From NCBI RefSeq assembly GCF_025965085.1, contig NZ_JAOPXP010000217.1:1-54864 (forward strand): a stretch of 54,864 bases of DNA, read 5' to 3'. The notes under the pieces were generated by a model. It had not been told where the DNA came from, made no database searches, and saw nothing but the letters and a program-made list of their open reading frames with translations. The position numbers and the translations under genes are program-made. Within the stretch, counting starts at the first letter, position 1; every line of letters begins with the position of its first letter. This document shows positions 16,204 through 54,864 of this stretch, one piece after another. This DNA comes from Marmoricola sp. (GTDB taxonomy: Bacteria > Actinomycetota > Actinomycetes > Propionibacteriales > Nocardioidaceae).

Positions 16204-16267
16204 CGCCGAGGCGTCGCAGTTTGCGCCGAAAACGACGCCGAGGCGTCGCAGTTTGCGCCGGAAACGA
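16204..16267 (+). repeat. Two tandem 32-bp repeats related to the following palindrome
   Basis: The 32-bp unit at 16204-16235 recurs at 16236-16267 with a single base change. Both begin CGCCGAGGCGTCGCAG, the same 16 bases that open the hairpin at 16268-16310. The three-copy array fills the space between the convergent tetR and thiolase genes. Confidence 0.85.
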
Positions 16268-16310
16268 CGCCGAGGCGTCGCAGATTGCGGCAATCTGCGA
16301 CGCCTCGGCG
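16268..16310. terminator. Perfect 21-bp inverted repeat, probable bidirectional terminator
   Basis: Two perfectly complementary 21-base arms (beginning CGCCGAGGCG, ending CGCCTCGGCG) flank one central G, giving a long uninterrupted stem with a minimal loop. It sits between convergent genes. There is no U-tract; such long palindromes may also be members of a dispersed intergenic repeat family. Confidence 0.65.
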
Positions 16311-16353
16311 TGTGGTGTTTCGGGATCGGGTGGTCTGGTGCGGTGCGGTGGCG

Positions 16354-36830: not shown

Positions 36831-37859
36831 ATGCGCTACCGAACCCTGGGAAACAGTGGCTGTGCGGTCTCCGAGCTGTGCCTCGGGACCATGACGTTCG
36901 GCGACGAGACCGATGAGACGGGGTCGCACCACCAGCTGGACCGGTTCATCGAGGCCGGCGGCAACCTCGTGGACACCGCTGACGTCTACTCGGCGGGGCT
37001 CTCCGAGGAGATCATCGGCCGCTGGCTCGCCACGCGATCCGGCGAGGTGACCGATGCCGTGGTGCTCGCCACCAAGGGGCGGTTCCCGATGGGGAGCCGG
37101 CCGAACGACAGCGGCCTGTCCGCACGCCACCTCACCCGTGCGCTGGAGGCCTCCTTGCGCCGGCTCGGGGTGGAGGCGGTCGACCTCTACCAGGTGCATG
37201 CGTGGGACCCGTGGACGCCCTTGGCCGAGACGCTCCGCACCCTCGACGGCTTCGTGCGGTCGGGCAAGATCCGCTACTACGGCCTGTCCAACTTCACGGG
37301 CTGGCAGCTGACGAAGGCCGTCCACCTGGCACACACGCTCGGCCTGGCCGAGCCGGTGACGCTGCAGCCGCAGTACAGCCTGATCGTCCGCGAGACCGAG
37401 TGGGAGATAGTGCCCGCCGTCCTGGACGCCGGCATGGGCATGCTGCCGTGGAGCCCGCTGGGTGGTGGCTGGCTGAGCGGGAAGTACCAGCGCGAGCAGC
37501 GCCCCGCAGGAGCCACCCGCCTCGGTGAGGACCCGGGCCGCGGCATGGAGGCCTGGGAGCGCCGGGGCACGGACCGCACCTGGCGCATCGTCGCGGCGGT
37601 GCAGAAGGTGGCCGAGGCACGCGGCGCCACGATGGCGCAGGTGGCCCTCTCCTGGGTCACGAACCGACCCGGCGTGACCTCCACGATCCTGGGCGCCCGC
37701 ACCCTCGAGCAGCTCGAGGACAACCTGGCGTCCGCCGACCTCGTCCTGGACGAGACGGAGGTGGCCGTGCTGGACGAGGCGAGCGACCTGCAGGCGACGG
37801 ACTACCCCTACGGGGAGCTCGCCCTGGAGCAGCGCTCCCGGAACCTCGCCGGCGGGTAG
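36831..37859 (+). CDS. Aldo/keto reductase
   Basis: This 342-residue TIM-barrel NADPH-dependent oxidoreductase has the catalytic tetrad region: Asp and Tyr in NLVDTADVYSAGLSE, Lys in VVLATKGRF and His in LYQVHAWDP. The C-terminal cofactor loop is STILGARTLEQLEDNL. TAGGGT ends six bases before the ATG, so the mRNA is probably leaderless. It belongs to the YajO/YhdN-like subgroup; the carbonyl substrate is unknown. The gene ends four bases from the convergent MmcQ/YjbR gene. Confidence 0.9.
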   Translation: MRYRTLGNSGCAVSELCLGTMTFGDETDETGSHHQLDRFIEAGGNLVDTADVYSAGLSEEIIGRWLATRSGEVTDAVVLATKGRFPMGSRPNDSGLSARHLTRALEASLRRLGVEAVDLYQVHAWDPWTPLAETLRTLDGFVRSGKIRYYGLSNFTGWQLTKAVHLAHTLGLAEPVTLQPQYSLIVRETEWEIVPAVLDAGMGMLPWSPLGGGWLSGKYQREQRPAGATRLGEDPGRGMEAWERRGTDRTWRIVAAVQKVAEARGATMAQVALSWVTNRPGVTSTILGARTLEQLEDNLASADLVLDETEVAVLDEASDLQATDYPYGELALEQRSRNLAGG

Positions 37860-37863
37860 CCGC

Positions 37864-38211
37864 TCAGGTGGGCAGCCGGTCGCCTCGCTGGAGGACGAGT
37901 CGCTGCGGCGCCGAGAGGCGCCACGCCTCGAAGGTCAGCTCCGCCAGCTCGTCGCGGGCGATGCCGCCGAGCTGGACCACGACCCAGCCGAACCCACCCG
38001 CGGTGAACTGCACCTCGAAGACCTCCGGCCGCTCCCCCACGAGTGCCGCCTGCTCGGCCAGTGTCTGCTTGAGCCCGACGGTGCGCGTCGGCTCCCAGAG
38101 GTAGCCGAAGGTCCTGCCGTCCACCTCGAGCCGGGAGTAGCGGGAGTGAGGCGCCACCGACACCTCGTCCAGCTGCGAGACGAGTTCGAGGAACTCGCTG
38201 ATCTCGGTCAC
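37864..38211 (-). CDS. MmcQ/YjbR-family protein
   Basis: This small protein of about 115 residues has a MmcQ/YjbR double-wing DNA-binding-like fold: YSRLEVDGRTFGYLWE, KQTLAEQAAL and GGFGWVVVQLGGIARDELAELTFEAWRL. GTG 38211 overlaps the stop codon (38208-38210) of a broken methyltransferase tail as GTGA. That shows the gene was once translationally coupled behind an intact rRNA methyltransferase gene, which the island has since separated from it. Its function is unknown. Confidence 0.8.
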   Translation of the reverse strand: MTEISEFLELVSQLDEVSVAPHSRYSRLEVDGRTFGYLWEPTRTVGLKQTLAEQAALVGERPEVFEVQFTAGGFGWVVVQLGGIARDELAELTFEAWRLSAPQRLVLQRGDRLPT

Positions 38212-38340
38212 ACGGGGACCAGCAGGGCGACACACTCGACGTGGTGCGTCATCGGGAAGACGCCCATGGTGCTGAGCGTGAGCGCGATCCTCTGCCGATT
38301 ACTGCGTTCATCTGAGCAAACTATCCGCTGACCTGCGGCT
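38208..38340 (-). pseudogene. 3' fragment of RumA/TrmA-type rRNA (uracil-C5)-methyltransferase gene at attL
   Basis: Reading leftward, the sequence ends GVFPMTHHVECVALLVP then V and stop. FPxTHHVExVxLL is the invariant C-terminal signature of 23S rRNA m5U methyltransferases (RumA/RlmD/TrmA family), which methylate uridine in RNA. Only this tail is native; upstream codons (about QRIALTL) are shared with the right repeat rather than with the enzyme family. No methyltransferase body follows to the right; instead the nitrate island begins. The fragment thus marks the left junction of an insertion into the 3' end of the gene. Confidence 0.75.
38233..38255. repeat. Left attachment-site core (attL)
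   Basis: These 23 bases, beginning CACTCGACGTGGTGCGTCAT, are identical to 54561-54583. The surrounding 38223-38337 aligns without gaps to 54551-54665. The core encodes PMTHHVE of the methyltransferase tail on the minus strand, so the integrase target is a coding 3' end that is restored on insertion. Confidence 0.75.
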
Positions 38341-38645
38341 TTGCTGTTTTGGATGCTCGTGGCGCAGGTTCCGCTTTGCGACCGTCCGCGAGTCAAAGCG
38401 CGCCCAAACCGCGCCCTCCGAGAATCGAGCTCCGACGCTCACAGTCGACAGCAGAGTGCGCATCGCTACCCGGACTACGGGGAGCCAGTTCGAGCTGCTC
38501 TGCGACCGATGAACCCCGATGGTCTCGTGAGGACGGCTCCCGGTGCAGGCATCGTGCACCGCGATCCTGGCGCGAAGGTCGGCCGCGGTGTCGGCCACCG
38601 CAAGCGACAGTTCGCCGTGCTGGAGCAGGACTCGTGTCCGACAGG
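38256..38645. other. Island left end, no protein-coding gene seen
   Basis: This 390-bp stretch lacks a convincing gene. Up to about 38460 it is alignable with sequence right of the second repeat (54584-54760). Both copies contain CTTTGCGA, then TCAAAGCG and GCCC in the same order, and the CTTTG/CAAAG pair can form a stem in each. It is therefore likely to be a conserved element terminus with recombination or regulatory sites. The remainder is the 3' flank of the flavohemoglobin gene. Confidence 0.55.
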
Positions 38646-39866
38646 TCAGGCCGAGGCCAGCCACTTGTCCGGCCCGAAGACCTCGTAGTAGATGTCAGCC
38701 TCGGAGACGTCCTGCTCGACCAGGCTGGCGCGTACGGACTCCATGAACGGCAGCGGACCGCACAGGTAGATCTGCGCGTCCGCGGGGATCTCGACTGCCC
38801 CGAGGTCGACACGTCCGGCCCGGAGGACGTCGCGGGTCGGGCGGACACCGAGGTCCTCGTACCAACGGTGCAGGAACGCCGTGGGCATCGCCGCCACAAG
38901 CTCTTTGAGCTCCTGCCGGTGGGCGTGCCGTGCCGGAGACCGGTCAGCGTGCAGCACCAGCACCTCACGGGCTGAGTCGGTGCCTGACAGGTAGTGGAGG
39001 ATGCCGATGATCGGGGTGACGCCGATGCCCGCGGAGATCAGCACCAGCGGGCGGTTCGAGTCCTCGACGACCAGGTCTCCGAACGGAGCCGACACCCTGA
39101 TCTCATCGCCCTCGAAGAGGTTGTGGTGCAGGAAGTTCGACACCTCACCGGCCGGAACGATCGTGCCGTCTCCCGTATCGTGGGCCGCGACAGCCTTGAC
39201 CGAGATCCCCCACTCACTGGGTTCCGATGAGCGCGTGATGCTGTACTGGCGGATCTGTCGGGCGCCGTCCGGCAGCGTCGCCTGGACTGACACGTACTGG
39301 CCCGGGCGCGCCACGGGCAGAGCACTGCGGTCGGCGGTGCCGATCACGAAGGACACCGTGTCCGGGGACTCCTGGAGACGACGCCTCAGCACCAGGGTGC
39401 GCCAGACGTCACCGTCCGCGACGCCGGTCTCGGCGTACAAGCGCTTCTCGATGGTGACCAGCGCTCCGGCCATGTGCCAGTAGACCTCGTCCCAGGCGCT
39501 GGCGACCTCGGGTGTGACGGCATCACCCAGCACCTCGACGATCGCTGCGAACAGGTGCTCGTGGACGATCGGGTACTGGTCCTCGGTGATGCCGAGCGAG
39601 GCGTGCTTGTGGGCGATGCGGGCCAGCACCTCGACCGGGTCGCGCCCGTCCTCTGCCACCAGGAGCGTGGCGTACATCGCGATCGCACCCGCAAGAGCGC
39701 TCTGCTGCTCGCCCTGGGCCTGGTTGCCGCGATTGAACAGGTCACGCTCGAGCTCGGGGTGAGCGGCGAACATGCGCTGGTAGAACACCGTCGTGATGTC
39801 GCCGATCGCGGCTCCGATGACGGGCAGCGTGGCCTTGACGACAGCGGCGGACTGGGTGGACAGCAT
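38646..39866 (-). CDS. hmp: Flavohemoglobin (nitric oxide dioxygenase)
   Basis: This 406-residue enzyme converts NO and oxygen to nitrate in the cytoplasm. The N-terminal globin (residues 1-140) has the proximal His in IAHKHASLGI and FYQRMFAAHPEL; the FAD domain has RQYSITRS; the NAD domain has LISAGIGVTPIIGILHYL and YLCGPLPFMESV. GGAG precedes ATG 39866. It lies next to the left attachment site at the end of the nitrate cluster, separated from the cupin gene by 156 bp with its own promoter space. It would remove NO formed during nitrite metabolism. Confidence 0.94.
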   Translation of the reverse strand: MLSTQSAAVVKATLPVIGAAIGDITTVFYQRMFAAHPELERDLFNRGNQAQGEQQSALAGAIAMYATLLVAEDGRDPVEVLARIAHKHASLGITEDQYPIVHEHLFAAIVEVLGDAVTPEVASAWDEVYWHMAGALVTIEKRLYAETGVADGDVWRTLVLRRRLQESPDTVSFVIGTADRSALPVARPGQYVSVQATLPDGARQIRQYSITRSSEPSEWGISVKAVAAHDTGDGTIVPAGEVSNFLHHNLFEGDEIRVSAPFGDLVVEDSNRPLVLISAGIGVTPIIGILHYLSGTDSAREVLVLHADRSPARHAHRQELKELVAAMPTAFLHRWYEDLGVRPTRDVLRAGRVDLGAVEIPADAQIYLCGPLPFMESVRASLVEQDVSEADIYYEVFGPDKWLASA

Positions 39867-40022
39867 GGGGTCTCCGAGACGTTTGGGTGCATGGGTGATA
39901 GCTCTTCTCCGGAGGAGGAGAGCCAGTGCGTCCACACCACCACGCCGCGACCGGGCTGCGGAGGGGTCGAAGGTCCTACCTCCCCCGGATGAACGTCACG
40001 ACTCGTTTCTCCGGGCTGCTGG

Positions 40023-40880: not shown

Positions 40881-41609
40881 TCAGCCGACCCGGTCCCAGC
40901 CGCGGCGGGGCCGGTGGCTGCCGAGCTGGGTGTCGTCGCGGCTGCGGTAGACGATGTAGGGGCGCGTCAGGTAGCCCACGGGGGCGCTGAAGACGTGCAC
41001 CAGACGGGTGAAGGGCCACAGCGCGAAGAGTCCGAAGGCGACGAGCGCATGCAGCTGGAAGCCCAGGGGCGCGTCGGCCATCAGCGATGCGTCGGGTTGG
41101 AATGCGAGGAACGAGCGGTACCAGACCGAGACGCCCTCGCGGTAGTTGTACTCGCCGCCGATGGTCAGGATCGAGCCGGCGATGGTGTTCCACATGCCGA
41201 GGACGATCGCCACGGCCAGGAAGGCGTACATCACCTTGTCCATCACGGTCGTGGCGGAGAAGACCGGCCCGACGGTCCGTCGCCGGTAGATCAGGATCGC
41301 CATCCCGACAACGGTCATCACGCCCGCGAGCAGGCCGCCTCCGACCGCGGCCACGTGATACGTGTGCTCGCTGATCCCAACCGCGTCGGTCCACGACTGC
41401 GGGATCAGCAACCCGATGACGTGGCCGCCGATGACCCCGAGCATCCCGAAGTGGAACAACGGGCTACCGATGCGCAGCAGGCGGTTCTCGTAGAGCTGGG
41501 AGGAGCGGGTGGTCCAGCCGAACTTGTCGTAGCGGTAGCGCCACAGGTGTCCGACGACAAAGACCGTCAGGCAGATGTAGGGGAAGACCACGAACAGTAA
41601 GTCGCTCAT
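40881..41609 (-). CDS. narI: Respiratory nitrate reductase gamma subunit
   Basis: This di-heme cytochrome b (242 residues, five membrane spans) passes electrons from menaquinol to NarH. Histidines in SPLFHFGMLGVIGGHVIG and FQLHALVAFGLFALWPFTRLVH supply heme ligands. It starts ATGA-overlapped with narJ and is followed by hemerythrin after one base. Confidence 0.95.
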   Translation of the reverse strand: MSDLLFVVFPYICLTVFVVGHLWRYRYDKFGWTTRSSQLYENRLLRIGSPLFHFGMLGVIGGHVIGLLIPQSWTDAVGISEHTYHVAAVGGGLLAGVMTVVGMAILIYRRRTVGPVFSATTVMDKVMYAFLAVAIVLGMWNTIAGSILTIGGEYNYREGVSVWYRSFLAFQPDASLMADAPLGFQLHALVAFGLFALWPFTRLVHVFSAPVGYLTRPYIVYRSRDDTQLGSHRPRRGWDRVG

Positions 41610-42316
41610 GCGCGCACTCCGGGGAACGACGGCATGGGCAGGAGAGTCTTCTCGGGGGCGGCACCACTGGCAGCACCCGGGCTGAACTGCGGGCTGGCGA
41701 AGGGGGCTAGTCCGACTTCCTCCTCGGGAGGACCTTCGGCTGCCAGGCGGCGTACGGCGTCGCGCTCTTCACCCCGCAGCGGCGGCAGGGTGGCCGTGAC
41801 CGCGTCGATCAGGCTTGCCCAGGGCGAGTGCATGTCCCGGAGGGAGAGCCGCAGAAGCTCCAGGCCGGCACGGTGGTCGAGCATCAGGTCCCGGCCGAGG
41901 TCGCGATCGATCGTGGCGGCGAACTCGAGCACGACGCACAGGTGGTCGGGCAGTTCCGCGTCGTCGAGCTCGAAGCCGGCGCGGAGGTAGGTCTGCTTGA
42001 AGCGGAGCAGCGCCATCCCCCGCTTGCGGGTGTCGCCGTGGGCGAAGTAGGTCAGGAAGAGGTTGCAGCGCCGCCGGTTGTCGAACGTCTCGACGTAGTC
42101 GGCCTGCAGCTCCGGCAGCGGCGTCGTCTCGAGGTGCACGAGGAAGTCGCGGATCGAGTCGCCGATCACGGCCGGCAGTCCCAGCGAAGCCGACCTGACG
42201 AGCTCGGCCCGGGCCAGGACCTCCTCGTCGGGGTAGTCCAGGAGCAACGAGACCGACTGCCACACGATCGTCAGCTGTTGGGGCGGCAGTGCCGCCTTGG
42301 CTCGACGCGCGCTCAC
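41606..42316 (-). CDS. narJ: Nitrate reductase assembly chaperone
   Basis: This 236-residue TorD-like chaperone assists molybdenum cofactor insertion into NarG. Key segments are LLLDYPDEEVLARAELV, ELQADYVETFDNRRRCNLFLTYFAHGDTRKRGMALL and ELPDHLCVVLEFAA. The C-terminal 45 residues are Pro/Glu/Ala-rich. GTG 42316 overlaps the narH stop (GTGA); upstream codons in the frame are antisense noise. Confidence 0.93.
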   Translation of the reverse strand: MSARRAKAALPPQQLTIVWQSVSLLLDYPDEEVLARAELVRSASLGLPAVIGDSIRDFLVHLETTPLPELQADYVETFDNRRRCNLFLTYFAHGDTRKRGMALLRFKQTYLRAGFELDDAELPDHLCVVLEFAATIDRDLGRDLMLDHRAGLELLRLSLRDMHSPWASLIDAVTATLPPLRGEERDAVRRLAAEGPPEEEVGLAPFASPQFSPGAASGAAPEKTLLPMPSFPGVRA

Positions 42317-43962
42317 GAGTCGGGTCCCTTCGGCGGGAACATCCCGGGTGGCGAACCCTTGCCGTCCCAGTTGAGGAGATTCACCCGGGCTCCCTTGTCG
42401 GCGGGCCCGGCGAGCGAGTCCGAGGTCTGGCGGTCCTGCAGCATCTGGAAGTTCTCGACGGCGATCGGGGTGGGTACGCCGGAGCCCTCGCCGAAGAGGT
42501 CCTGCTGGCCGCCGCCGTACTCCGAGACCGAGCACTCGGTCGATAGTTCCTCCAGGGAATGAGCCTGCTCGGCGTGCGCCGGCGGGATCACGTAGCGGTC
42601 CTCGTACTTCGCGATCGCGAGGAGTCGGTACATGTCGTACATCTCCTCCTCGGTCATCCCGACCGCGGCCGGGATGGAGGCGTCGGGGTCACGGCCCATG
42701 TTGATGTCGCGCATGTAGCAGCGCATCGCGGCCAGCTTCTTGAGCACGGCGTCCACCGGCTCGACCTCGCCGGCGGTGAACAGCTCGGCGAGGTACTCGA
42801 CCGGGATCCGCAGCGCGTCGATGGCGGCGAAGAGGTTGCCTTTGTCCTCGGCGTCCTCACCCGTCTCCTGGACCACGTCGACGACCGGCGAGAGCGGCGG
42901 GATGTACCAGACCATCGGCATGGTGCGGTACTCCGGATGCAATGGCAGCGCGACCTTGTAGGTGTTGATCAGCGCGTAGATCGGCGAGCGCTGCGCGGCG
43001 TCGATCCAGTCGCGGGCGATGCCGGCCCGCTCAGCCTCACGCATCACCTCGGGGTCGAACGGGTCGAGGAAGACGTCGCGCTGGGCCTCGTACAGCCCGT
43101 GCTCGTCCTCCATCGACGCGGCCTCGAGCACCTTGTCGGCGTCGTAGAGCATCAGGCCGATGTAGCGCAGACGCCCGACGCAGGTCTCTGCGCAGACGGT
43201 GGGCAGGCCCACCTCGATGCGGGGGAAGCAGAACGTGCACTTCTCGGCCTTGCCGGTGCGGTGATTGAAGTAGATCTTCTTGTAGGGGCAGCCGGACACG
43301 CACTTGCGCCACCCCCGGCACTTGTCCTGGTCGACCAGGACGATGCCGTCCTCCTCGCGCTTGTAGATCGCCCCGCTGGGGCAGGACGCGGCACACGAGG
43401 GGTTGAGGCAGTGCTCGCAGATCCGCGGCAGGTAGAACATGAAGGTCTGCTCGAACTCGAACTTCACCTTCTCTGCGATCTTCGCGAGCATCGGGTCGCG
43501 GTGCGCGGTCTCGGTCGAGCCGCCGAGGTCGTCATCCCAGTTGGCCGACCACTCGATCTTCATGTTCTTGCCGCTGATCAGTGACTTCGGCCGCGCGACC
43601 GGGGTGTGTTCCTGGGCGGGTGCGTCGGTGAGGGTGGCGTAGTCGTAGGTCCAGGGCTCGTAGTACTCGCCGATCGAGGGCAGCTTGGGGTTGGAGAAGA
43701 TCGTCATCAGGTTCTTGAACCGGCCTCCGGCCTTGAGCTTCATCCGGCCGCGCTTGTTGAGCTCCCAGCCGCCCTGCCACTTCTCCTGGTCCTCGTAGGT
43801 CCGCGGGTAGCCGAGGCCGGGCCGCGTCTCGACGTTGTTGAACCAGATGTACTCCGTGCCCGACCGGTTGGTCCACGCCTGCTTGCACGTGACCGAGCAG
43901 GTGTGGCACCCGATGCACTTGTCGAGGTTCATCACCATCGCCATCTGGGCCATCACGCGCAT
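42313..43962 (-). CDS. narH: Respiratory nitrate reductase beta subunit
   Basis: This 549-residue electron-transfer subunit holds three [4Fe-4S] clusters and one [3Fe-4S] cluster. Cysteine groups are visible in CIGCHTCSVTC, ICEHCLNPSCAASCP, KCRGWRKCVSGCPYKKIYF (the Trp marks the 3Fe cluster) and CTFCFPR with CAETCVG. The start MRVMAQMAMVMNLDKC at 43962 lies one base after the narG stop. The C-terminal tail beyond residue 500 is poorly conserved. Confidence 0.96.
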   Translation of the reverse strand: MRVMAQMAMVMNLDKCIGCHTCSVTCKQAWTNRSGTEYIWFNNVETRPGLGYPRTYEDQEKWQGGWELNKRGRMKLKAGGRFKNLMTIFSNPKLPSIGEYYEPWTYDYATLTDAPAQEHTPVARPKSLISGKNMKIEWSANWDDDLGGSTETAHRDPMLAKIAEKVKFEFEQTFMFYLPRICEHCLNPSCAASCPSGAIYKREEDGIVLVDQDKCRGWRKCVSGCPYKKIYFNHRTGKAEKCTFCFPRIEVGLPTVCAETCVGRLRYIGLMLYDADKVLEAASMEDEHGLYEAQRDVFLDPFDPEVMREAERAGIARDWIDAAQRSPIYALINTYKVALPLHPEYRTMPMVWYIPPLSPVVDVVQETGEDAEDKGNLFAAIDALRIPVEYLAELFTAGEVEPVDAVLKKLAAMRCYMRDINMGRDPDASIPAAVGMTEEEMYDMYRLLAIAKYEDRYVIPPAHAEQAHSLEELSTECSVSEYGGGQQDLFGEGSGVPTPIAVENFQMLQDRQTSDSLAGPADKGARVNLLNWDGKGSPPGMFPPKGPDS

Positions 43963-43963
43963 G

Positions 43964-46900
43964 TCAGTACTCCACGTCTTGTGAGCGCTTGCGGATGATG
44001 GTGACCTCGTCACGTTGGTTGCCGGTGGGGCCGAGATAGTTGAAGGCGAAGGTCAGCTGGGCATACCCGCCGATGAGGTGGGACGGCTTCACCAGCAGCC
44101 GCGTCAGCGAGTTGTGGATGCCGCCGCGCTTGCCCGACGTCTCCGCGATCGGTACGTCGATGAGCCGGTCCTGTGCGTGGTACATGTACACCGTTCCCTC
44201 GGGCATCCGGTGCGAGACGATCGCCCGGGCCACGACGACACCGTTGCGGTTGACCGCCTCGATCCAGTCGTTGTCCTTGATCCCGACCTTCGCGGCATCC
44301 CGGTCGCTCATCCAGATGTTCTGCCCGCCCCGCGACAGCGAGAGCATGAACAGGTTGTCCTGGTACTCCGAGTGGATCGACCACTTGTTGTGCGGCGTCA
44401 GGTAGCGCACGGTCAGCCCCTCCACCTGCCCGTTGGAGCCGTCGGAGACGTTGCCGAGGGCGGGCTCGGCGAACAGGGCGGCCATGTTGAGCGGGGGCCG
44501 GTAGACCGGCAGCCCCTCGCCGAGCTCGGTCATCCAGTCATGGTCGAGGTAGAAGTGCATCCGCCCGGTCAGCGTGTGCCAGGGCTTCTTGCGCTCCACG
44601 TTGATGGTGAACGGCGAGTAGCGCCGGCCACCGGTCTCGGAGCCCGACCACTCCGGTGAGGTGATCACCGGCACGGGCGGGCCCTGGGTGTCGGCGAAGG
44701 TGATCTGCTTGCCCTCGTGCTCCTCGGCCAGGTCGGCCAGCCGCACGCCGGTCCGCTTCTCGAGGGTCTTGAAGCCCTGCGTCGCGAGAACGCCGTTGGT
44801 GGTCCCGGACAGCGCCAGGATCGCCTCGCAGACGTTGACGTCCTTCTTCAGCGAGGGCCGGCCGTCGGCGACACCACCGCGTACAGCGCCGTTCTTCGCT
44901 CGCAGGTAGTCGACCTGCTTGCTCAGCTCGAACGTCACGCCCTTGGTGGTCGCACCGAGCGTGTCGACCAGCGGTCCCAGCGCGTTCATCTTCTCGGCCA
45001 CCGCGCCGTAGTCACGCTCGACCTCGACCAGCTTGGGCATCGTGACTCCCGGGATCGGCTCGCACTCGCCCTTCTTCCAGTCGCGGACCACGCCGTGCGG
45101 GTTGGCCATCGCGTCGGGGGTGTCGTGCGTGAGGGGCACCGCCACGACGTCCTTGCGCAGCCCGAGGTGGGTGGCCGCCAGCTCGCTGAACTTCTCGGCG
45201 ATCGTCTGCCACGCGTCCCAGTCGGTGCGGGTCTGCCACGGCGGTGCGATGGCCGGGTTGAAGGAGTGCACGAAGGGGTGCATGTCGGTGGTGTTGAGGT
45301 CGTGCTTCTCGTACCAGGTCGCCGCCGGCAGGACGACGTCGGAGAAGATCGTCGTGCTCGTCTGCCGGAAGTCGATCGTCATCAGCAGGTCGAGCTTGCC
45401 CTCGGGTGCCTCGTCCCGCCACGTCACGTCGACCGGACGGTGGTCCTCGGGTGTCTCGGCCGCGCGCACCGACGAGTCGGTGCCGAGCAGGTGCTTGAGG
45501 AAGTACTCGTTGCCCTTGCCGGACGAGCCGAGCAGGTTGGCCCGCCAGATCGACAGGATGCGCGGATAGTTCTGCGGCGCGTCCGGGTCCTCGCCGGCGA
45601 AGTCGAGCTCGCCAGACCTGAGCTGCTCGACGACGTACTCCCCTACCGGCTTGCCGGCCGCAGCGGCGTCGTCGCTGAGGTCCAGCGGGTTGCGGTCGAA
45701 GGTCGGGTAGGACGGCATCCACCCCATCCGCGCGCTCTGGGCGATGACGTCGGCGGTGGACTTGCCGGCCAGCTGGCCGCTGCCGGTCGTGGCGGACAGG
45801 GTGTCGGCGCCGAACTGGTCGTAGCGGAACTGGTTGGTGTGGAGGTACCAGTACGCGGTCTGGATCATGTTGCGCGGTGGCCGGTTCCAGTCGAGCGCAT
45901 TGGCGATCTGGGTGTAGCCGGTGATCGGCCGGACCTTCTCCTGCCCCACGTAGTGCGCCCAACCGCCGCCGTTGACGCCCTGGCAGCCGGTCAGGTTGGT
46001 CAGGGTGAGGAACGCGCGGTAGATCGTGTCGGAGTGGAACCAGTGGTTGGTGCCGGCCCCCATCACGATCATCGAGCGTCCCCGGGACTCCTCGGCGTTG
46101 GCGGCGAACTCGCGGCCGATCCGGGCCGCGGTCGAGGCCGGGACGCCGGTGATGGCTTCCTGCCACGCAGGTGTGTACGGCGACTGTGCATCGTCGTAGC
46201 CGGCGGCCCATTCCCCCGGCAGCCCGTCCCGGCCGACGCCGTACTGCGCGAGCAGCAGGTCGAACACCGTGGTGACGAGATGACCGTCGACGCGGCGGAC
46301 CGGGACCCCACGCGGCAGGTCGGCGGCCGCGCCGTCGGGGGTGTCGAAGCGCGGCATCCGCACCAGCACGGTCTCCTCCGCGCCGCCGAGCAAGGAGAGC
46401 TGCGGGTCGACGTCGCCGAGCTCGAGGTTCCACGTGCCGACGCCGGAGTCGCCGTACCGGTGGCCCAACGAGCCGTTGGGCACGACCGGCTCGCCGGTGC
46501 GCGCGTCGATGAGCACGGTCTTGAAGGCGGCGTTCTCCTCTGCCGCGTCGGTCGACGCCAGGTCGGAAGCGGTCAGGAACTTCCCGGCCGTGAACTCGCC
46601 GTCGGCCGCTTCGTCGAGCTTCACCAGGTAGGGCAAGTCGGTGTAGGTCTTGACGTACTGCGTGAAGTAGGGCGTGTCCCGGTCGACGAAGAACTCCTTG
46701 AGCACGACGTGCCCCATCGCCATCGCCAGCGCGGCGTCCGTGCCCGGCCTTGCGGGAAGCCACTCGTCGGCGAACTTCACGTTGTCCGCGTAGTCGGGCG
46801 CGACCGCGATGACCTTCTGGCCGCGGTAGCGCGCCTCCGTCATCCAATGCGCATCGGGCGTGCGGGTGACCGGCAGGTTGGAGCCCCACATGATGAGGTA

Positions 46901-47659
46901 GCCCGCGTTCCACCAGTCCCCGGACTCGGGAACGTCGGTCTGGTCGCCGAACACCTGCGGCGAGGCGACCGGGAGATCGGCGTACCAGTCGTAGAAGCTC
47001 AGCATCGAGCCGCCGATGAGGTTCACGAACCGAGCACCCGAGGCGTGGGAGACCATCGACATCGCCGGGATCGGCGAGAAGCCAGCGACCCGGTCGGGCC
47101 CGTACTTCTTGATCGTGTGGACGTGGGCGGCCGCGACGATCTCGCTGGCCTCCTCCCACGTGGCCCGGACCAGTCCGCCCTTGCCGCGGGCGGCCTTGTA
47201 GGCCTTCGCACGCTGCGGGTTCTCGACGATGTGCTCCCATGCCTTCACCGGATCGCCGCCGTGCTGAGACTTGGCCTCCCGGAACATCTGGAGCAGCACA
47301 CCGCGCACGTAGGGGTAGCGGACCCGGGTCGGCGAGTAGGTGTACCAGGAGAACGCCGCGCCGCGGGGACAGCCGCGGGGCTCGTACTCCGGGGAGTCCG
47401 GGCCGACCGACGGGTAGTCGGTCTGCTGGGTCTCCCAGGTGATGATGCCGTCCTTGACGTAGACCTTCCACGAGCACGACCCCGTGCAGTTCACGCCGTG
47501 CGTGGAGCGCACGACCTTGTCGTGGCTCCAGCGGTCCCGGTAGAAGTCGTCCGCCTCCCTCCCGCCTGCGTGGGAAAGGGTCCGGAGGTCCGCCGAGACC
47601 GTCCCCCGGGTGAAGAACCGACGGCTGCGGACCAGCGCATCCGCGAGGGCGCCGTCCAT
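43964..47659 (-). CDS. narG: Respiratory nitrate reductase alpha subunit
   Basis: This 1231-residue catalytic subunit reduces nitrate to nitrite at a Mo-bis-MGD centre. The FS0 cluster ligands lie in HGVNCTGSCSW with His54, Cys58 and Cys62. LIMWGSNLPVTRTPDAHW and GAGTNHWFHSDTIYRAFL belong to the cofactor pocket; the C-terminal domain carries KWSIHSEYQDNLFMLSLSRGG. No Tat signal is present, as for cytoplasm-facing NarG. ATG 47659 (MDGALADALV) is preferred; a TTG overlapping the narK stop is an alternative. Gene order after narK is G-H-J-I. Confidence 0.97.
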   Translation of the reverse strand: MDGALADALVRSRRFFTRGTVSADLRTLSHAGGREADDFYRDRWSHDKVVRSTHGVNCTGSCSWKVYVKDGIITWETQQTDYPSVGPDSPEYEPRGCPRGAAFSWYTYSPTRVRYPYVRGVLLQMFREAKSQHGGDPVKAWEHIVENPQRAKAYKAARGKGGLVRATWEEASEIVAAAHVHTIKKYGPDRVAGFSPIPAMSMVSHASGARFVNLIGGSMLSFYDWYADLPVASPQVFGDQTDVPESGDWWNAGYLIMWGSNLPVTRTPDAHWMTEARYRGQKVIAVAPDYADNVKFADEWLPARPGTDAALAMAMGHVVLKEFFVDRDTPYFTQYVKTYTDLPYLVKLDEAADGEFTAGKFLTASDLASTDAAEENAAFKTVLIDARTGEPVVPNGSLGHRYGDSGVGTWNLELGDVDPQLSLLGGAEETVLVRMPRFDTPDGAAADLPRGVPVRRVDGHLVTTVFDLLLAQYGVGRDGLPGEWAAGYDDAQSPYTPAWQEAITGVPASTAARIGREFAANAEESRGRSMIVMGAGTNHWFHSDTIYRAFLTLTNLTGCQGVNGGGWAHYVGQEKVRPITGYTQIANALDWNRPPRNMIQTAYWYLHTNQFRYDQFGADTLSATTGSGQLAGKSTADVIAQSARMGWMPSYPTFDRNPLDLSDDAAAAGKPVGEYVVEQLRSGELDFAGEDPDAPQNYPRILSIWRANLLGSSGKGNEYFLKHLLGTDSSVRAAETPEDHRPVDVTWRDEAPEGKLDLLMTIDFRQTSTTIFSDVVLPAATWYEKHDLNTTDMHPFVHSFNPAIAPPWQTRTDWDAWQTIAEKFSELAATHLGLRKDVVAVPLTHDTPDAMANPHGVVRDWKKGECEPIPGVTMPKLVEVERDYGAVAEKMNALGPLVDTLGATTKGVTFELSKQVDYLRAKNGAVRGGVADGRPSLKKDVNVCEAILALSGTTNGVLATQGFKTLEKRTGVRLADLAEEHEGKQITFADTQGPPVPVITSPEWSGSETGGRRYSPFTINVERKKPWHTLTGRMHFYLDHDWMTELGEGLPVYRPPLNMAALFAEPALGNVSDGSNGQVEGLTVRYLTPHNKWSIHSEYQDNLFMLSLSRGGQNIWMSDRDAAKVGIKDNDWIEAVNRNGVVVARAIVSHRMPEGTVYMYHAQDRLIDVPIAETSGKRGGIHNSLTRLLVKPSHLIGGYAQLTFAFNYLGPTGNQRDEVTIIRKRSQDVEY

Positions 47660-47694
47660 CCCGATCTCTGATGTGGGCTTCTTCGGCGGTGGGG

Positions 47695-49005
47695 TCAACG
47701 AGCTTCCTGTCCCTGGGTGGCGGTGCGGCGGACGACGGTGATGGTGAGCAGGAGGGCGAGGGTGGCGGTGACGCAGAGCATCCACAGCCCGATGGCGTAG
47801 GAGTCGGTGCGTCCGTAGACATAGCCCATGATCAGCGGCGGAACGAAGCCGCCCAGTCCTCCGGCGGCCCCAACGAGGCCCGTGACGCCGCCGACCCTGG
47901 AGGGGTCGGTGACCTTGGCGATGAGGGCAAAGGTAGCCCCGCTGCCGGAGCCGAGAGCGGCTGCCATCGCGAGGAACGCCACGGTGCCGATACCGCCCAA
48001 GGGCGGGGTTCCGGCCGAAATGGCGGCACCCACCACGACCACACCGAAGCCGGTGGCGAGCACCGGAATCGCGCCGAGCCTGTCGGCGAGCCAACCTCCG
48101 ACGGGGCGCATGATGACCGCTACCAGCACGAAGCCGGCCATCCGATTGGCGGCGTCCGCTGGGCTGAGCCCGTGAGCGGTCTTGAGGTAGGCCGGGAGGT
48201 ACACCGAAAACGCGACGTAGCCACCGAAGGCAACCGCATAGAGCAGGCAGGCCTGCCACGTGATGGGCAGCCGGGCGTTGGCCGAGATCCGCGATGTCAG
48301 GGAGGTCGTGGGCACGACTCGGCCGGGGGCGTCGCGCATGATCAACCAGGCCGCGAGTGCATAGCAGGCGAGCACACCGGCGGTGATCAGGAAGGGTGCC
48401 TTGGCGCCGAGGTGATCGGTGAGCTTCACGGTCGTCAGGGCGCTGATCGCGGTCCCGCCCATGCCGGCGCCGAAGATCCCGATCGCGAGACCGCGCTTCT
48501 CCGGCGGGAACCAGGCATTGACGAAGGGGACTCCGACGGCGAAAGCCGTGCCGGCGATGCCGAGGAAGAAGCCACCGACCAGGAGCAGGTTGTAGGAGTG
48601 CAGGGCGAAGAAGGCGATGAAGAGGATCGGCAGGATCGTCACGCCCGAGACGATCGGGAACATGACGCGGCCGCCGTACCGGTCGGTGAGTCCACCCACG
48701 ATGATGCGGCCCAGAGAGCCCACGACCACCGGGACCGCCACGAGGAGCGCGACGTCGGACTCACTGAGCTTGCCGATGCCGCCCGTGGCTCGGAAGAGCG
48801 GCCCGAGTGGGCTGATCAGGGCCCAGGCCCAGAAGTTGACCGCGAACCCGATGGTCGCCATTGCCAGCATCAGCCACGGCGAGCGCGTTGCCCCGCGGGT
48901 CTGGGGCTCCGAGGTGGTCGGAGTCGTCACTGTCGTGTCCATCCCGGGGGAATCATCAGACCCACCATGGCCCTTCGCCGTGGTCTTGCCAATGGACGCG
49001 GTCAT
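47695..49005 (-). CDS. narK: Nitrate/nitrite transporter (NarK, MFS)
   Basis: This 436-residue major facilitator has 12 predicted spans. Nitrate signature-like segments are GIFGAGMGGTAIS and the second-half GAAGGLGGFVPPLIMG; FNAWF-like FVNAWFPPEKRGLAIGI follows the fourth span. It has an unusual polar N-terminal tail of about 40 residues rich in Thr/Ser/Gly. Its start is one base after the DUF2249 stop and its stop lies 35 bp before narG. It probably imports nitrate or exchanges it for nitrite. Confidence 0.94.
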   Translation of the reverse strand: MTASIGKTTAKGHGGSDDSPGMDTTVTTPTTSEPQTRGATRSPWLMLAMATIGFAVNFWAWALISPLGPLFRATGGIGKLSESDVALLVAVPVVVGSLGRIIVGGLTDRYGGRVMFPIVSGVTILPILFIAFFALHSYNLLLVGGFFLGIAGTAFAVGVPFVNAWFPPEKRGLAIGIFGAGMGGTAISALTTVKLTDHLGAKAPFLITAGVLACYALAAWLIMRDAPGRVVPTTSLTSRISANARLPITWQACLLYAVAFGGYVAFSVYLPAYLKTAHGLSPADAANRMAGFVLVAVIMRPVGGWLADRLGAIPVLATGFGVVVVGAAISAGTPPLGGIGTVAFLAMAAALGSGSGATFALIAKVTDPSRVGGVTGLVGAAGGLGGFVPPLIMGYVYGRTDSYAIGLWMLCVTATLALLLTITVVRRTATQGQEAR

Positions 49006-51200: not shown

Positions 51201-51489
51201 ATCTTCCGAAGCGCGTGACGTAAGCAGGGTCAGGGGGAAGCCGGCGGTGGCGGCCTCGGTTGCTGGGCGAGCATATCCGCCTCCCCCGCGACGACCTGAC
51301 CTGGCAATCAGGACGCGTGGCGCGTCTGTCCTGACACCTCGGCCCGCGGCGCGGCCGATCTCACGAATGTCGGTGCAGCCCCAGAAAACTGGCTTGCGAG
51401 GAGATCCGGCCCGGCCGGGCGCTGAGCCAGTCGCGGGTGGCAGCCTCAGCACGACTCATCAGGCTGCGGGCGTGACGGAAGTTCGTCGG

Positions 51490-51706
51490 TGACACATCGA
51501 GCGGACACCGACCGGCAGCCGCCAAGTCGCCAGAGCGGGCCAGCCGAAAATCTCGGCGTCTGCTGGCCACTCCTCGACACGGTGGCAGTAGACGGCCAGG
51601 TGTCCTTCGCCTTGAGGATGATCCCGTCCCCGAGCGCGATCCGGAGGAGGTACGGCAACGTCGACCCGGGGTCGGCGTTGCGGGCGATCACGAAGTCCTC
51701 CGGCAC
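51490..51706 (-). pseudogene. Frameshifted remnant of a small conserved actinobacterial protein (possibly ERCC4-like nuclease)
   Basis: From GTG 51706 the frame reads MPEDFVIARNADPGST and LPYLLRIALGDGIILKAKDTWP, then loses similarity; a different frame continues VYCHRVEEWPADAEIF from about 51597. I recall proteins with MPxDFVIARNP...DTWPRTAKVYCHR in actinobacteria annotated as ERCC4-domain or hypothetical proteins. A small deletion near 51595 explains the frame break. The family name is from memory and unverified; the frameshift is seen in the sequence. Confidence 0.5.
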
Positions 51707-51750: not shown

Positions 51751-52473
51751 CTACAGGTCAGCCGCCGTACCGAGCCGCTCGAGCGAGACCTCGGCATTCG
51801 GGACCTCGATCAGGAGCACGCGGTCCTTCTTTACCGCAGCGATCATCGCACGCAGCCGCTGGCGGTCCTTCTTGGTGAGCTCCTCGCCCCGGAAGTCGCG
51901 GGCCGTCAGCAGTCCGGCGAGGATCACGAAGTCGCGTCGGTGGCGACCGGGGCCGGGGTCGCCCGAGTTGCTGAGAGCTGCTGCCTTGCCGACCAGGGCG
52001 CCGACGAGATTGGGACGGCGTACGGATCCTTCGCGGCCCCCGGCCGTCACTCCGATCGTTTCGCTGCGCCGAAGCGCTTGGGTCCCGCCGGCGGTCGGCA
52101 GGGTTGGACCGCCGGTGACTCCCTGGCGCTGGCTGGCCCGCTCGCCGATGCCGTCCGGAAGGAGCACGTCGATCGAGGCGTCGCCTCGGATCCAGCGATG
52201 CTGGAGGCCCTCGGCTGAGATACCGGCAGACTCGAACCCTAGGTCGGTCAACGTCTTGGTGAAGGTGGCGAGCATCGTGGGGGCGGCGCGTACGTCGATG
52301 ACGGTGTCGGCGTCGTTCGTCGGCCGCACCGCGAACTGTCCGCGCTCGGCGCAGTGCAGATGGACGAGCTGGCCGCCGATCAGCGTCCAGCCTTCGGCGA
52401 GCCGCTCGTGCAGGTCGAGCAGGCCCAGCCAGGAGGCGGTTTGCTCGGGCGGCATCGCCGGCAGGACGATCAT
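51751..52473 (-). CDS. Nucleotidyltransferase (AbiEii/MNT-like) of a two-gene module
   Basis: This 240-residue protein has a nucleotidyltransferase-like N-terminal half: GWTLIGGQLVHLHCAERG gives the GG-containing loop and RPTNDADTVIDVRAA the Asp-x-Asp catalytic pair. The C-terminal half is helical and basic (ELTKKDRQRLRAMIAAVKKDR). Its ATG overlaps the stop of the upstream HTH gene as ATGA. Such NTases serve as toxins in AbiE- or MNT-type systems, although housekeeping or antitoxin-like roles are possible. Located beside the integrase, it may stabilise or defend the island. Confidence 0.72.
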   Translation of the reverse strand: MIVLPAMPPEQTASWLGLLDLHERLAEGWTLIGGQLVHLHCAERGQFAVRPTNDADTVIDVRAAPTMLATFTKTLTDLGFESAGISAEGLQHRWIRGDASIDVLLPDGIGERASQRQGVTGGPTLPTAGGTQALRRSETIGVTAGGREGSVRRPNLVGALVGKAAALSNSGDPGPGRHRRDFVILAGLLTARDFRGEELTKKDRQRLRAMIAAVKKDRVLLIEVPNAEVSLERLGTAADL

Positions 52474-53189
52474 CGCTCTGCTGCCTTCCGCTCCATGGCC
52501 AGCTCGTGTAGCAACTCAGCTGCCCTGGCCTCCTCGCGCGGCCCGCGATGCTCGGCGAGATCCGCCGCAAGCCGGAGCCTTGAGTCCGGGTATGGGTACT
52601 GCACGTCTGGGATGACGTGAAGTACGACATTCGCATCGCTGTCGGCCTCGACCAGGAGGTAATCCCTCACGACCCCATCCACATCCGATTCGCCGAGGTA
52701 GCCCTCGATGTCGGCCGAGGCGATGCCGATCGCCCCTAGGTCGACGAGCACGGCCCAGCGGTCATCGGCCCTGAGATCGGCCAGATCGGCCGGTGCCGCA
52801 CGGAGCGGGCGGCGCTGGGCCCGGTTGCGGAAGACTGACCGAAGTGACGCTGCCAGGTCGCCGACGGCTTCCTCACCGCTGGCGGGCTTCACAGCAGGGG
52901 CAAGCAGACGCTTCAGCTGCCCTCGGGCACGCGCCGAGGCTGCGGGCTCGCTGGGACGCATTCCTTCGCGATCGCTCTCCGAGACCGCGATGACGGCCCA
53001 TGCGGAGCGGGCCGAATGCGGGCGGCCCGGCTTGCTGCGCTCCTGAACGCGCAGGAGGGAACGCTCGTCGACCACCCACTGGGACCCGATTCGCTCGGCG
53101 ACCAGCGAGCCATCCGCGATGCGCTGGTGGATCCGGGGCACGCTGACGCCGAGCCGCTCTGCGGCCTGCGCGACGCTGATTGCTCCCAT
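52470..53189 (-). CDS. HTH (excisionase/MerR-like) protein paired with the nucleotidyltransferase
   Basis: This 239-residue protein starts with a helix-turn-helix ISVAQAAERLGVSVPRIHQRIADGSLVAERIGSQWVV, the excisionase/MerR-type fold. A charged linker follows, and then a C-terminal domain (ADLRADDRWAVLVDLGAIG onward, ending LLHELAMERKAAER) that I do not firmly recognise but that recalls AbiEi-like antitoxins. ATG 53189 fits a leaderless promoter (TAGGAT seven bases upstream) and lies beside the palindrome at 53194-53221. It is probably the autoregulating antitoxin or regulator of the module; an excision role for the island is also possible. Confidence 0.7.
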   Translation of the reverse strand: MGAISVAQAAERLGVSVPRIHQRIADGSLVAERIGSQWVVDERSLLRVQERSKPGRPHSARSAWAVIAVSESDREGMRPSEPAASARARGQLKRLLAPAVKPASGEEAVGDLAASLRSVFRNRAQRRPLRAAPADLADLRADDRWAVLVDLGAIGIASADIEGYLGESDVDGVVRDYLLVEADSDANVVLHVIPDVQYPYPDSRLRLAADLAEHRGPREEARAAELLHELAMERKAAER

Positions 53190-53193
53190 GCAC

Positions 53194-53221
53194 ACAATCC
53201 TAGAAGACTTTCAAGGATTGT
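53194..53221. promoter_or_regulatory. Inverted repeat over the HTH-NTase promoter
   Basis: ACAATCCT and AGGATTGT are perfect eight-base arms with a 12-base spacer. On the minus strand the proximal arm includes TAGGAT, the apparent -10 element, so a bound protein would block RNA polymerase. The layout fits autoregulation by the adjacent HTH protein. Confidence 0.6.
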
Positions 53222-53267: not shown

Positions 53268-54353
53268 TCACAACCCGAGGTCCTTGCTGGAGCTGAACTC
53301 GAGGGCGTCGACGGGGCGGATGTAGCGGTCGAACAGGACGGAGAGGTCCTTGTGCCGGGTCTGGGCAGCGATCCGCGCGAGCGGGACGCCGGCGCGGTGG
53401 GCCTCGGTGGCGTGTCCAGCGCGGAGTGAGTGGCCGGTGATCCGTTCGGCGTTGGGGAGGCCGGCTTCTTTCGCGCGGGCTTTGAGCAGCCGACCGAAGG
53501 TGTGGGGTGCGAGCCCGCGTTCCCCTGTTGCGCCGCCGCGGAGCGGGACGAACACCGGCCCCGGTGTGATGCCGCGGAGTCGGAGCCAGTGCTGGAGTGC
53601 GGCGATCGGGTCGGTCTCTGGGTGCTTGCCCCGCGCGACGGCGACCTTGGCGCCGGCGGCGTTGCGGTCGGTCTTGGAGCGGCGGATCCGCAGAACGATC
53701 CCGTCAGGCCGCGACTCGAGGTCGTCCAAGGCGAGCGCCGCGAGTTCGCCGATGCGTAGCGCGCCGGCGTAGCCGACGAGGATGATGGCGACGTCACGGG
53801 CGCCGCCGAGTGTTGCCCTGTCGATGCCGGTCACGAGAGTGCGGAGCTCGGCGACGGAGAGCGGGTGGGCTTGGCGGACGGGCGCCACGCCGTAGGTGCG
53901 CCGGAGACCGTCCCGGACCTGGCGGACGGCACGGTTCTCGTTGGGGTTGGGCAGGCCGTGGGCGCTGTGAACGTAGTTGATCACGCTTATGAAGGGGCTG
54001 AGGCTGATCACGGCGAGGCCGTCGGCGACGCGCTGGGTCATGAAGGCGCACATCGCGGCCGGGTCGGCCGGGAGCGGTTCGAACCCGCGCTCGGCGCACC
54101 ACGTGGCCCACTGCTCCCACGCGTATTGGTAGATCTTGTGAGTTCCGGGTGAACGGGCGGCCTCGCTCGCGCGGGTGATCCGCTCGAGGTCCTGGTCGGT
54201 CAGTCCCCGACGTGGCTGGAGCGTGGGCCCGGGCAGCCACGGGATCACGGCAGCGAGGTCGGCTGCGTCCTCCTGGTCTCGTGCGGGCTGGGGTGATGGT
54301 TGAGCAAGGGACGTCGATGCGTTCGTAGGCATTGGCGGTTCATAGCCAGCCAC
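53268..54353 (-). CDS. Tyrosine recombinase (island integrase)
   Basis: This 361-residue site-specific recombinase has an N-terminal SAM-like core-binding domain (residues 51-150) and a catalytic domain with the full set of residues: Arg200 (GALRIGEL), Lys227 (RRSKTDR), His308 and Arg311 (HSLRAGHATEA), His334 (TRHKDL) and the nucleophile Tyr344 (LFDRYIRP). Starts are uncertain: GTG 54353 or ATG 54332. It lies about 200 bp inside the right attachment repeat, the usual place for an integrase, and reads away from it. It shares ancestry with the fragment at 51036-51200. Confidence 0.93.
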   Translation of the reverse strand: MAGYEPPMPTNASTSLAQPSPQPARDQEDAADLAAVIPWLPGPTLQPRRGLTDQDLERITRASEAARSPGTHKIYQYAWEQWATWCAERGFEPLPADPAAMCAFMTQRVADGLAVISLSPFISVINYVHSAHGLPNPNENRAVRQVRDGLRRTYGVAPVRQAHPLSVAELRTLVTGIDRATLGGARDVAIILVGYAGALRIGELAALALDDLESRPDGIVLRIRRSKTDRNAAGAKVAVARGKHPETDPIAALQHWLRLRGITPGPVFVPLRGGATGERGLAPHTFGRLLKARAKEAGLPNAERITGHSLRAGHATEAHRAGVPLARIAAQTRHKDLSVLFDRYIRPVDALEFSSSKDLGL

Positions 54354-54785
54354 TCCCCCGGTGTGCGGCCCGGGTCGGTTCAGCCCCGCCGCGCGCGACG
54401 AAACCGCCCGGCCTTCCGTGGGCCGGATCGGGTGTCAAACGCCGCCGGTCGGCATACATTGCGCCCAAAGTGCGCCATAAGGCGGGTTGGCGGAGGTCGA
54501 CGGCTTCATCGCGAATCGCTCCGCCGCAGGTCAGAGCCGGTTTTCTCCAACAGCGCGACGCACTCGACGTGGTGCGTCATCGGAAAGACACCGATCATCA
54601 CGAGCGTAAGCGCGATCCTTTGCGGTCGGCTGCGCTCAGGAGGCGAAACCGGCCTCTGACCTGCGGCGATGCCGTCCTCGGGGACTGCGGGCGCCGGAGC
54701 GGTGTTGCGGGCCTTTGCGAATCAAAGCGAGCCCATTCCGAGCCCTCGTGTCAGCGGACACCGGCTGTCGCAGACGAGGCCAGTG
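54354..54785. other. Right island end and start of a second element-like sequence
   Basis: No gene is supported in these 432 bp. From the integrase start to 54550 lies its upstream region, with TTGACA on the minus strand at 54433-54438 but no clear -10. From 54551 to 54665 is the right repeat. Beyond it, 54666-54760 resembles the island's own left end (CTTTGCGA, TCAAAGCG and GCCC in the same order) and not a methyltransferase body. Confidence 0.55.
54561..54583. repeat. Right attachment-site core (attR)
   Basis: This is identical to 38233-38255 over 23 bp, within a gap-free alignable block 54551-54665. On the minus strand it encodes GVFPMTHHVECVALLEK, again the C-terminal signature of an RNA (uracil-C5)-methyltransferase, here ending in EKTGS instead of the native VPV-stop. 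Upstream codons share QRIALTL with the left copy. Confidence 0.75.
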
Positions 54786-54864
54786 TCAGATCTCACCGCG
54801 AGCGCGTACTTCGAGGTACTGATCCATGACTGCCACCGGGATCCGGCCGCGGTCGGAGACGACG
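54786..54864 (-). CDS. Lsr2-like nucleoid protein, C-terminal end (partial)
   Basis: The last 25 codons of a gene running in from the right edge read VVSDRGRIPVAVMDQYLEVRARGEI then stop. The segment SDRGRIPxxVxxxY is the AT-hook-like DNA-binding end of Lsr2 proteins (RGRIP core), actinobacterial xenogeneic silencers comparable to H-NS. It lies just beyond the right island repeat, probably inside a second element. The fragment is short, so the family call rests on one motif. Confidence 0.6.
   Translation of the reverse strand, partial: VVSDRGRIPVAVMDQYLEVRARGEI

What the first reader, a model, noticed from the sequence alone, without database searches (positions are those of the whole stretch)
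54551..54864. Second related element apparently stacked in tandem right of the island
If only one element had inserted, the right repeat should lead into the methyltransferase body. Instead the next about 100 bp resemble the island's own left end, and then an Lsr2-like silencer gene begins. This fits two elements accreted at one site, with the intact methyltransferase gene beyond the window.
Basis: inference. Interest (0 to 1): 0.55.

Follow-up and report, generated by a model that had tools for sequence, protein, structure and literature searches.

The report
Two stacked integrative elements, confirmed
Two related mobile DNA elements, the first carrying a nitrate-respiration operon, appear to have inserted one after the other at the end of the same RNA-methyltransferase gene; this is a recognised way for genomic islands to grow, found here as a widespread family in Nocardioides-type bacteria.

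Summary
The window is one whole contig (C152). At its right edge lie the right arm of the nar island, the attachment core, then about 200 bp homologous to the island's own left end. The predicted third core is on contig C150, fused to a complete RlmD/RumA-type methyltransferase gene with a second tyrosine integrase (INT2) beside it. Joining the window's left flank to C150 restores an empty site seen in relatives. The link C152–E2–C150 is inferred: E2's interior was not found. The "Lsr2-like silencer" is the C-terminal tail of an ERCC4-nuclease gene.

New here: the arms carry an 11-bp motif (CAAAGYGMGCC) at fixed distances from the core, nearly confined to these att sites. It accompanies INT2 in half of the right ends read (15 of 30) and was absent from 14 loci of Int1 relatives at other sites. 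Left or right ends occur in 30 and 38 of 341 family genomes; stacks on single contigs are seen in six other genomes, one with nar. Known kind of event (ICE/IME/CIME accretion), new family.

The parts
36831..37859 (+). aldo/keto-reductase-like gene, chromosomal left flank (named by eye)
   Evidence: 80% identical gene in empty site G009, 83% in G017
37864..38235 (-). YjbR-family gene, chromosomal left flank; directly follows the methyltransferase gene in three empty-site relatives
   Evidence: Pfam YjbR; adjacent to the MTase in G006, G009, G010
38229..38255 (+). left attachment core: inferred native 3' end of the methyltransferase (VECVALLVPV*) fused to E1's left arm
38256..38457 (+). E1 left arm; arm motif CAAAGYGMGCC at 38394-38404
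38646..39935 (-). E1 cargo: flavohemoprotein-like (globin + reductase)
   Evidence: Pfam; NCBIfam NO-inducible flavohemoprotein 5.6e-104 but below its cut-off
40881..49005 (-). E1 cargo: respiratory nitrate reductase cluster narI (40881-41609), narJ-like (41606-42535), narH (42313-44013), narG (43964-47683), NarK-type transporter (47695-49005)
   Evidence: NCBIfam narI, narH, narG above cut-off; NarK 2.6e-53, below cut-off; narJ by position and homology only
51446..51706 (-). E1: truncated N-terminus (about residues 1-59) of the ERCC4-nuclease gene
51751..53195 (-). E1: nucleotidyltransferase-like gene (named by eye, no family match) and HTH_17 gene, same pair as in the 2.8-kb G017 element
   Evidence: 86% and 78% identity to G017; HTH_17
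53268..54353 (-). E1: Int1, tyrosine recombinase, 361 aa, reads away from the core
   Evidence: Pfam Phage_integrase 1.1e-11
54466..54536 (+). E1 right arm: arm motif 54466-54476, inner repeat CCGCAGGTCAGAG 54524-54536
54557..54583 (+). chimeric junction core (E1 right arm / E2 left arm)
54584..54785 (+). E2 left arm: inner repeat (inverted) 54654-54666, arm motif 54723-54733
54786..54864 (-). E2: C-terminal end of the ERCC4-nuclease gene (Lsr2-type DNA-binding tail), cut by the contig end
   Evidence: 92% identical to residues 300-323 of the G017 protein; domains

Best explanation
Two related integrative elements are stacked at one attachment site, the 3' end of an RlmD/RumA-type methyltransferase gene: YjbR - attL - E1 (16.3 kb, nar cargo, Int1) - chimeric att - E2 (interior not found, INT2 at its right end) - attR - intact methyltransferase. 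Each insertion was a tyrosine-recombinase exchange in the core; each element brings its own short 3' coding end, so the gene stays open (ending LLTKIGSDLR instead of the inferred native LLVPV). The second element most simply entered the E1/methyltransferase att site, giving the E1-right/core/E2-left junction. Shown: three cores, the three junction types, the empty site, the intact gene, INT2, the arm anatomy, single-contig stacks elsewhere. Inferred: that E2 spans C152 to C150 without other elements, the order of insertion, that INT2 is the recombinase for these att sites, and that Int1 is not.
For: Third core with intact gene and INT2 on C150. Joined flanks align through the junction to empty-site relatives G009, G006 and G010, while each occupied half stops near the core; YjbR directly follows the MTase in those three. 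Arm motif: 3 in the window, 0.08 expected, 0 of 100 shuffles reach 3; in 26 loci (477 kb) 37 of 39 occurrences lie within 500 bp of a scored core, nearly all at 99-110 bp on the right or 156-158 bp on the left (L083 re-reads the site of L069, so 34 of 36 without it); the other 2 lie about 50 bp past a methyltransferase 3' end. Family scans: left att in 30 and right att in 38 of 341 genomes, reversed-pattern control 0. Of 30 right-att loci read (of 41 sites listed), 25 abut a full methyltransferase. Close INT2 relatives: 8 of 12 loci have core and methyltransferase directly beyond, 1 more a core followed by a nar element. Stacks on single contigs: G002, G035, G190, G206, G242, G246.
Against: No contig bridging C152 and C150 was found. 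Neither a TraG-type coupling protein from G035 nor a gene upstream of Xis/INT2 in N. baculatus was found in this assembly (the tool warns that such empty answers lack a positive control), so E2 is not shown to be conjugative. Int1 remnants sit at the same place in G195 and G182, so Int1 may be E1's true integrase. INT2 was seen at only 15 of 30 right-att loci within 1.5 kb (11 long matches, 4 fragments). 6 of 26 loci read for the motif have none. 5 of 30 right att are not followed at once by a full methyltransferase: 2 are strict chimeric junctions, 1 has it about 0.8 kb on, 2 (G152, G228) are unexplained.
Confidence: 0.9

Rival explanations
1. A single element with a duplicated end: the left-end-like 200 bp at the right edge is an internal duplication within one island, not a second element.
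For: The ERCC4 gene is split between E1 (residues 1-59) and the right edge (residues 300-323), as if one gene had been broken.
Against: A different integrase and a third core stand at the methyltransferase on C150; the middle right arm differs from the C150 right arm (61 of 85 aligned bases identical); single-contig stacks occur in other genomes.
Confidence: 0.05
2. Three or more elements lie between YjbR and the methyltransferase; the unassembled gap holds further copies.
For: G190 has two units in series bounded by three cores, and G246 has two left arms 4.1 kb apart with a right arm beyond (these cores have 2 to 6 mismatches); the interior between C152 and C150 was not found.
Against: BLAST found three junction copies in the 95.9%-complete assembly; E2's left end and C150's right end fit one element, as in G071, which has the ERCC4 C-terminus at one end and INT2 remnants at the other.
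Confidence: 0.2
3. Int1 and INT2 are both cognate integrases that use the same attP; E1 is autonomous.
For: Int1 remnants at the same position in G195 and G182.
Against: Other Int1 relatives in the genus are not at this gene, 4 of 11 examined lie near tRNA genes, and the exact arm motif is absent from 14 such loci (53 kb; the 5 weakest relatives were left out); Int1 and INT2 share about 30% over 151 aa.
Confidence: 0.3

Closest known systems
ICE/IME/CIME tandem accretion in streptococci (PMC5704250, passages read; Pavlovic 2004 and Bellanger 2011 seen only in its reference list)
   Same: Elements stacked in one target-gene end, chimeric internal att, incoming element entering attR that contains the gene end, decayed members that keep their att sites, distantly related integrases in one stack
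   Different: Actinobacterial hosts; here the att arms are shared across members while integrases differ, whereas the tested example in the review has very different att sites
Streptococcal ICEs in rumA (PMC4701971, passages read)
   Same: [quoted passage not shown] integration changes the protein's C-terminus
   Different: Those use serine integrases and change the reading frame; here tyrosine integrases, and an in-frame 3' end is restored
Actinomycete ICEs (AICE; passages of PMC11706625 read)
   Same: Tyrosine integrase, actinobacterial host
   Different: AICEs are described there with FtsK-type transfer proteins; the G035 relative has a TraG/T4SS-type coupling protein and a T2SSE ATPase; the interior of the window's E2 is unknown

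Membership tests
Tandem (accreted) integrative elements | Att cores flank each element in direct orientation at one target gene end | tested here: met
   Three cores, same orientation relative to the gene
Tandem (accreted) integrative elements | Chimeric att between elements: right arm of one, left arm of the next | tested here: met
   Window 54466-54733; same in G002 and G206
Tandem (accreted) integrative elements | Empty site restored when flanks are joined | tested here: met
   (G009, G006, G010; in G011 YjbR is further away)
Tandem (accreted) integrative elements | All junctions of this genome on one molecule | tested here: inconclusive
   Junctions lie on two contigs
ICE (self-transmissible) | Conjugation genes in E2 | tested here: inconclusive
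   No match to the G035 coupling protein or the N. baculatus right-end gene in the assembly; relative G035 has a TraG-type protein
CIME (att sites kept, integrase and transfer genes lost) | No integrase in the element | tested here: not met
   E1 has Int1, so E1 is not filed as a CIME; in the 2.8-kb G017 element no Int1 or INT2 match was seen
Any integrative element | Excision and circular form | not testable with these tools
   needs PCR or reads

The most novel reading that the evidence does not exclude
One att frame (core plus CAAAGYGMGCC arms) defines a family of elements in Nocardioidaceae in which INT2-bearing conjugative elements move integrase-less or Int1-bearing satellites that swap cargo (nar respiration, restriction-modification-like genes, ERCC4/HTH modules); respiratory nitrate reduction thus spreads as a passenger mobilised in cis or trans by INT2.
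Probability: 0.4. Interest if true: 0.55.

Novelty: new member of a known kind. Interest (0 to 1): 0.4.

Why it matters
A guess from some 300 bases at a contig edge proved right in substance. The work also gives an exact sequence signature (core, arm motifs, fixed spacing) with which such islands and their stacks can be delimited in draft genomes of this family, where, as here, a contig can end inside the stack. A nitrate-respiration operon inside a stackable element bears on how that trait moves.

Tried and rejected
Lsr2 silencer on E2: rejected, ERCC4 nuclease with Lsr2-type tail. Inner repeat CCGCAGGTCAGAG as a diagnostic site: not used, since it also occurs near Int1-family loci (exact in L041, one mismatch in L039, L042, L047; L039 and L041 near tRNA genes), in L041 as part of what looks like a terminator hairpin. 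Finding E2's interior in other contigs: nothing found. nar as a marker of the site: rejected as general, since 160 of 197 family genomes have some NarG match, many weak, and close nar copies in the 9 genomes read around them show no MTase, integrase or ERCC4 match in the stretches read (for G017 only 4 kb); among the loci read, only G002 besides the window has nar at this site. Defence-system match for the ERCC4 module: none for ERCC4 or the nucleotidyltransferase-like protein, two weak HTH-region hits. Literature: accretion terms, 3 papers; rumA with ICE, 10; Nocardioides island terms, 32, of which 12 listed; Lsr2 with ERCC4, 0; six-term actinobacterial search, 0; Nocardioides with ICE, 4, none about Nocardioides elements by title and start of abstract. 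Three papers were read in passages only. No claim of absence from print is made beyond these searches. The random-background maxima were invalid because segments could overlap the query; they were redone.

Full report
Setting. The window is the whole of contig C152 of a 3.55-Mb, 243-contig genome, 95.9% complete.

Observation. The two ends repeat: 38219-38347 and 54547-54675, 75% identical. BLAST extends this to about 200 bp at 72%, E 1.6e-22. Beyond the core 131 of 201 aligned bases agree, score 58 against a background maximum of 15 in 2000 segments. After the right copy the sequence is therefore a second left end, and no methyltransferase body follows.

The missing half. BLAST of the junction region against the own genome gave three places: the two in the window and C150:1070-1131. 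There the core is the 3' end of a complete 381-aa methyltransferase gene. It passes the NCBIfam cut-off of TIGR00479, rumA/RlmD (210 against 183.55 bits), though not that of a second RlmD model (222.5 against 458). Left of it, reading towards the core, lie the last 289 residues of INT2, 94% identical to the N. baculatus integrase and cut by the contig start.

Empty site. In G006, G009 and G010 the methyltransferase is directly followed by YjbR, the gene at the left edge of the window's island, with the aldo/keto-reductase-like gene beyond it in the G006 and G009 stretches; in G011 YjbR lies some 0.75 kb away. Joining the window's left flank to C150 at the core gives a 376-aa gene ending VECVALLVPV. 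One alignment spans the junction in G009 (2744 columns), G006 (1432) and G010 (1641); in G011 the match is split. Each occupied half alone stops near the core. This places both elements between those two genes.

Anatomy of the att sites. The motif CAAAGYGMGCC occurs three times in the window, all at the ends (0.08 expected, 0 of 100 shuffles reach three). In 26 loci chosen because they hold the site (477 kb), 37 of 39 occurrences lie within 500 bp of a scored core: at 99, 101 or 110 bp on the integrase side and 156-158 bp (once 179) on the other. L083 re-reads the site of L069; without it the figures are 34 of 36. The remaining two lie about 50 bp past the methyltransferase end in G149 and G195, where no core was scored. 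Six of the 26 loci have none (L064, L065, L068, L111, L112, L113). In 649 kb of other loci there are three occurrences, all in L013 and L021, which re-read the methyltransferase sites of G035 and G021. In 14 loci with Int1 relatives (53 kb; 19 were fetched besides the own one, the 5 weakest left out) there is no exact copy. Patterns for a left or right att found 30 and 38 of 341 family genomes; the reversed control found none. The right-att search listed 41 sites and gave loci for 30. Of these 30, 25 abut a full methyltransferase; 11 have a long INT2 match, 4 an INT2 fragment, 1 an Int1 remnant. Of the 5 others, L165 and L178 are strict chimeric junctions, L175 has the methyltransferase about 0.8 kb on, L164 and L168 are unexplained.

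Which integrase. Close INT2 relatives stand at this gene: of 12 loci, 8 have core and methyltransferase directly beyond, 1 has a core and then a nar element, 3 show neither on the stretch held. Int1 relatives in the genus, other than the window's own, lie elsewhere, 4 of 11 examined near tRNA genes. Yet Int1 remnants are found at this site in G195 and G182. I favour INT2 as the recombinase for these att sites, E1 being a user of INT2-type att sites that also carries Int1, but this is inference.

What the right-edge gene is. In G017 the same C-terminal tail belongs to a 324-aa ERCC4 nuclease with an Lsr2-type DNA-binding domain, next to a nucleotidyltransferase-like gene and an HTH gene, all within 2.8 kb between two cores, with no Int1 or INT2 match. 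E1 carries the same pair and a truncated N-terminus of the nuclease; E2 starts with its C-terminus; the middle of the gene was not found in the own genome. G071 has INT2 remnants at the methyltransferase end and the ERCC4 C-terminus at the other, the layout proposed for E2.

Stacking elsewhere. Stacks on single contigs are seen in G002 (INT2-bearing element, then a nar element without an Int1 or INT2 match, then the methyltransferase, whose core there has 8 mismatches), G035 (2.4 kb plus about 90 kb, the outermost copy seen only as a short protein match), G190, G206, G242 and G246. G002, G206 and G246 match N. aequoreus NRRL B-24464, N. limicola DJM-14 and N. gansuensis WSJ-1 by equal contig lengths, an inference. 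The G035 element encodes a TraG-type coupling protein and a T2SSE ATPase; two further proteins that I took by eye for secretion proteins gave no Pfam match.

nar cargo. The closest full-length NarG relatives are 92-97% identical and lie in other species and genera of the family; around 9 of these copies no element of this kind was seen in the stretches read. This suggests, but does not prove, recent transfer of nar and its capture into E1.

Limits. E2's interior was not found as far as tested (searches have no positive control), so its size, transfer genes and copy number are unknown. Excision was not tested. Gene calls in relatives come from a simple script of mine, and several names were given by eye and are marked so.

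Verdict. The kind of event is known (PMC5704250, passages read; rumA as a target in PMC4701971, passages read). What is added is the exact att frame, its spread, and the nar-carrying member.

Noticed in passing
window 16204-16311: Two to three 32-nt tandem repeats (CGCCGAGGCGTCGCAG...) followed by a perfect 22-nt inverted copy one base away, a strong hairpin.
   Followed up: no
window 2304-2603 and 4343-4642: 300-nt direct repeat at 76% identity, 2 kb apart; perhaps paralogous coding sequence.
   Followed up: no
L011, L015 (G014, G018): Just after the methyltransferase stop lies a palindromic TATCTTGACRTCAAGATA-type sequence; a similar half lies near the distal core in G021.
   Followed up: no
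L116:1912-6505 (G071): Between INT2 remnant and ERCC4 tail at the same site lie genes that look like a glutamate transporter and decarboxylase pair (by eye), another cargo type.
   Followed up: partly
L194:7881-20000 (G206): The stacked element beside the methyltransferase carries helicase-, kinase- and type I restriction-modification-like genes (by eye).
   Followed up: no
L141 (G190:C1:1725559-1725714): A left-att match about 500 kb from the main site in G190, possibly a second or displaced insertion.
   Followed up: no
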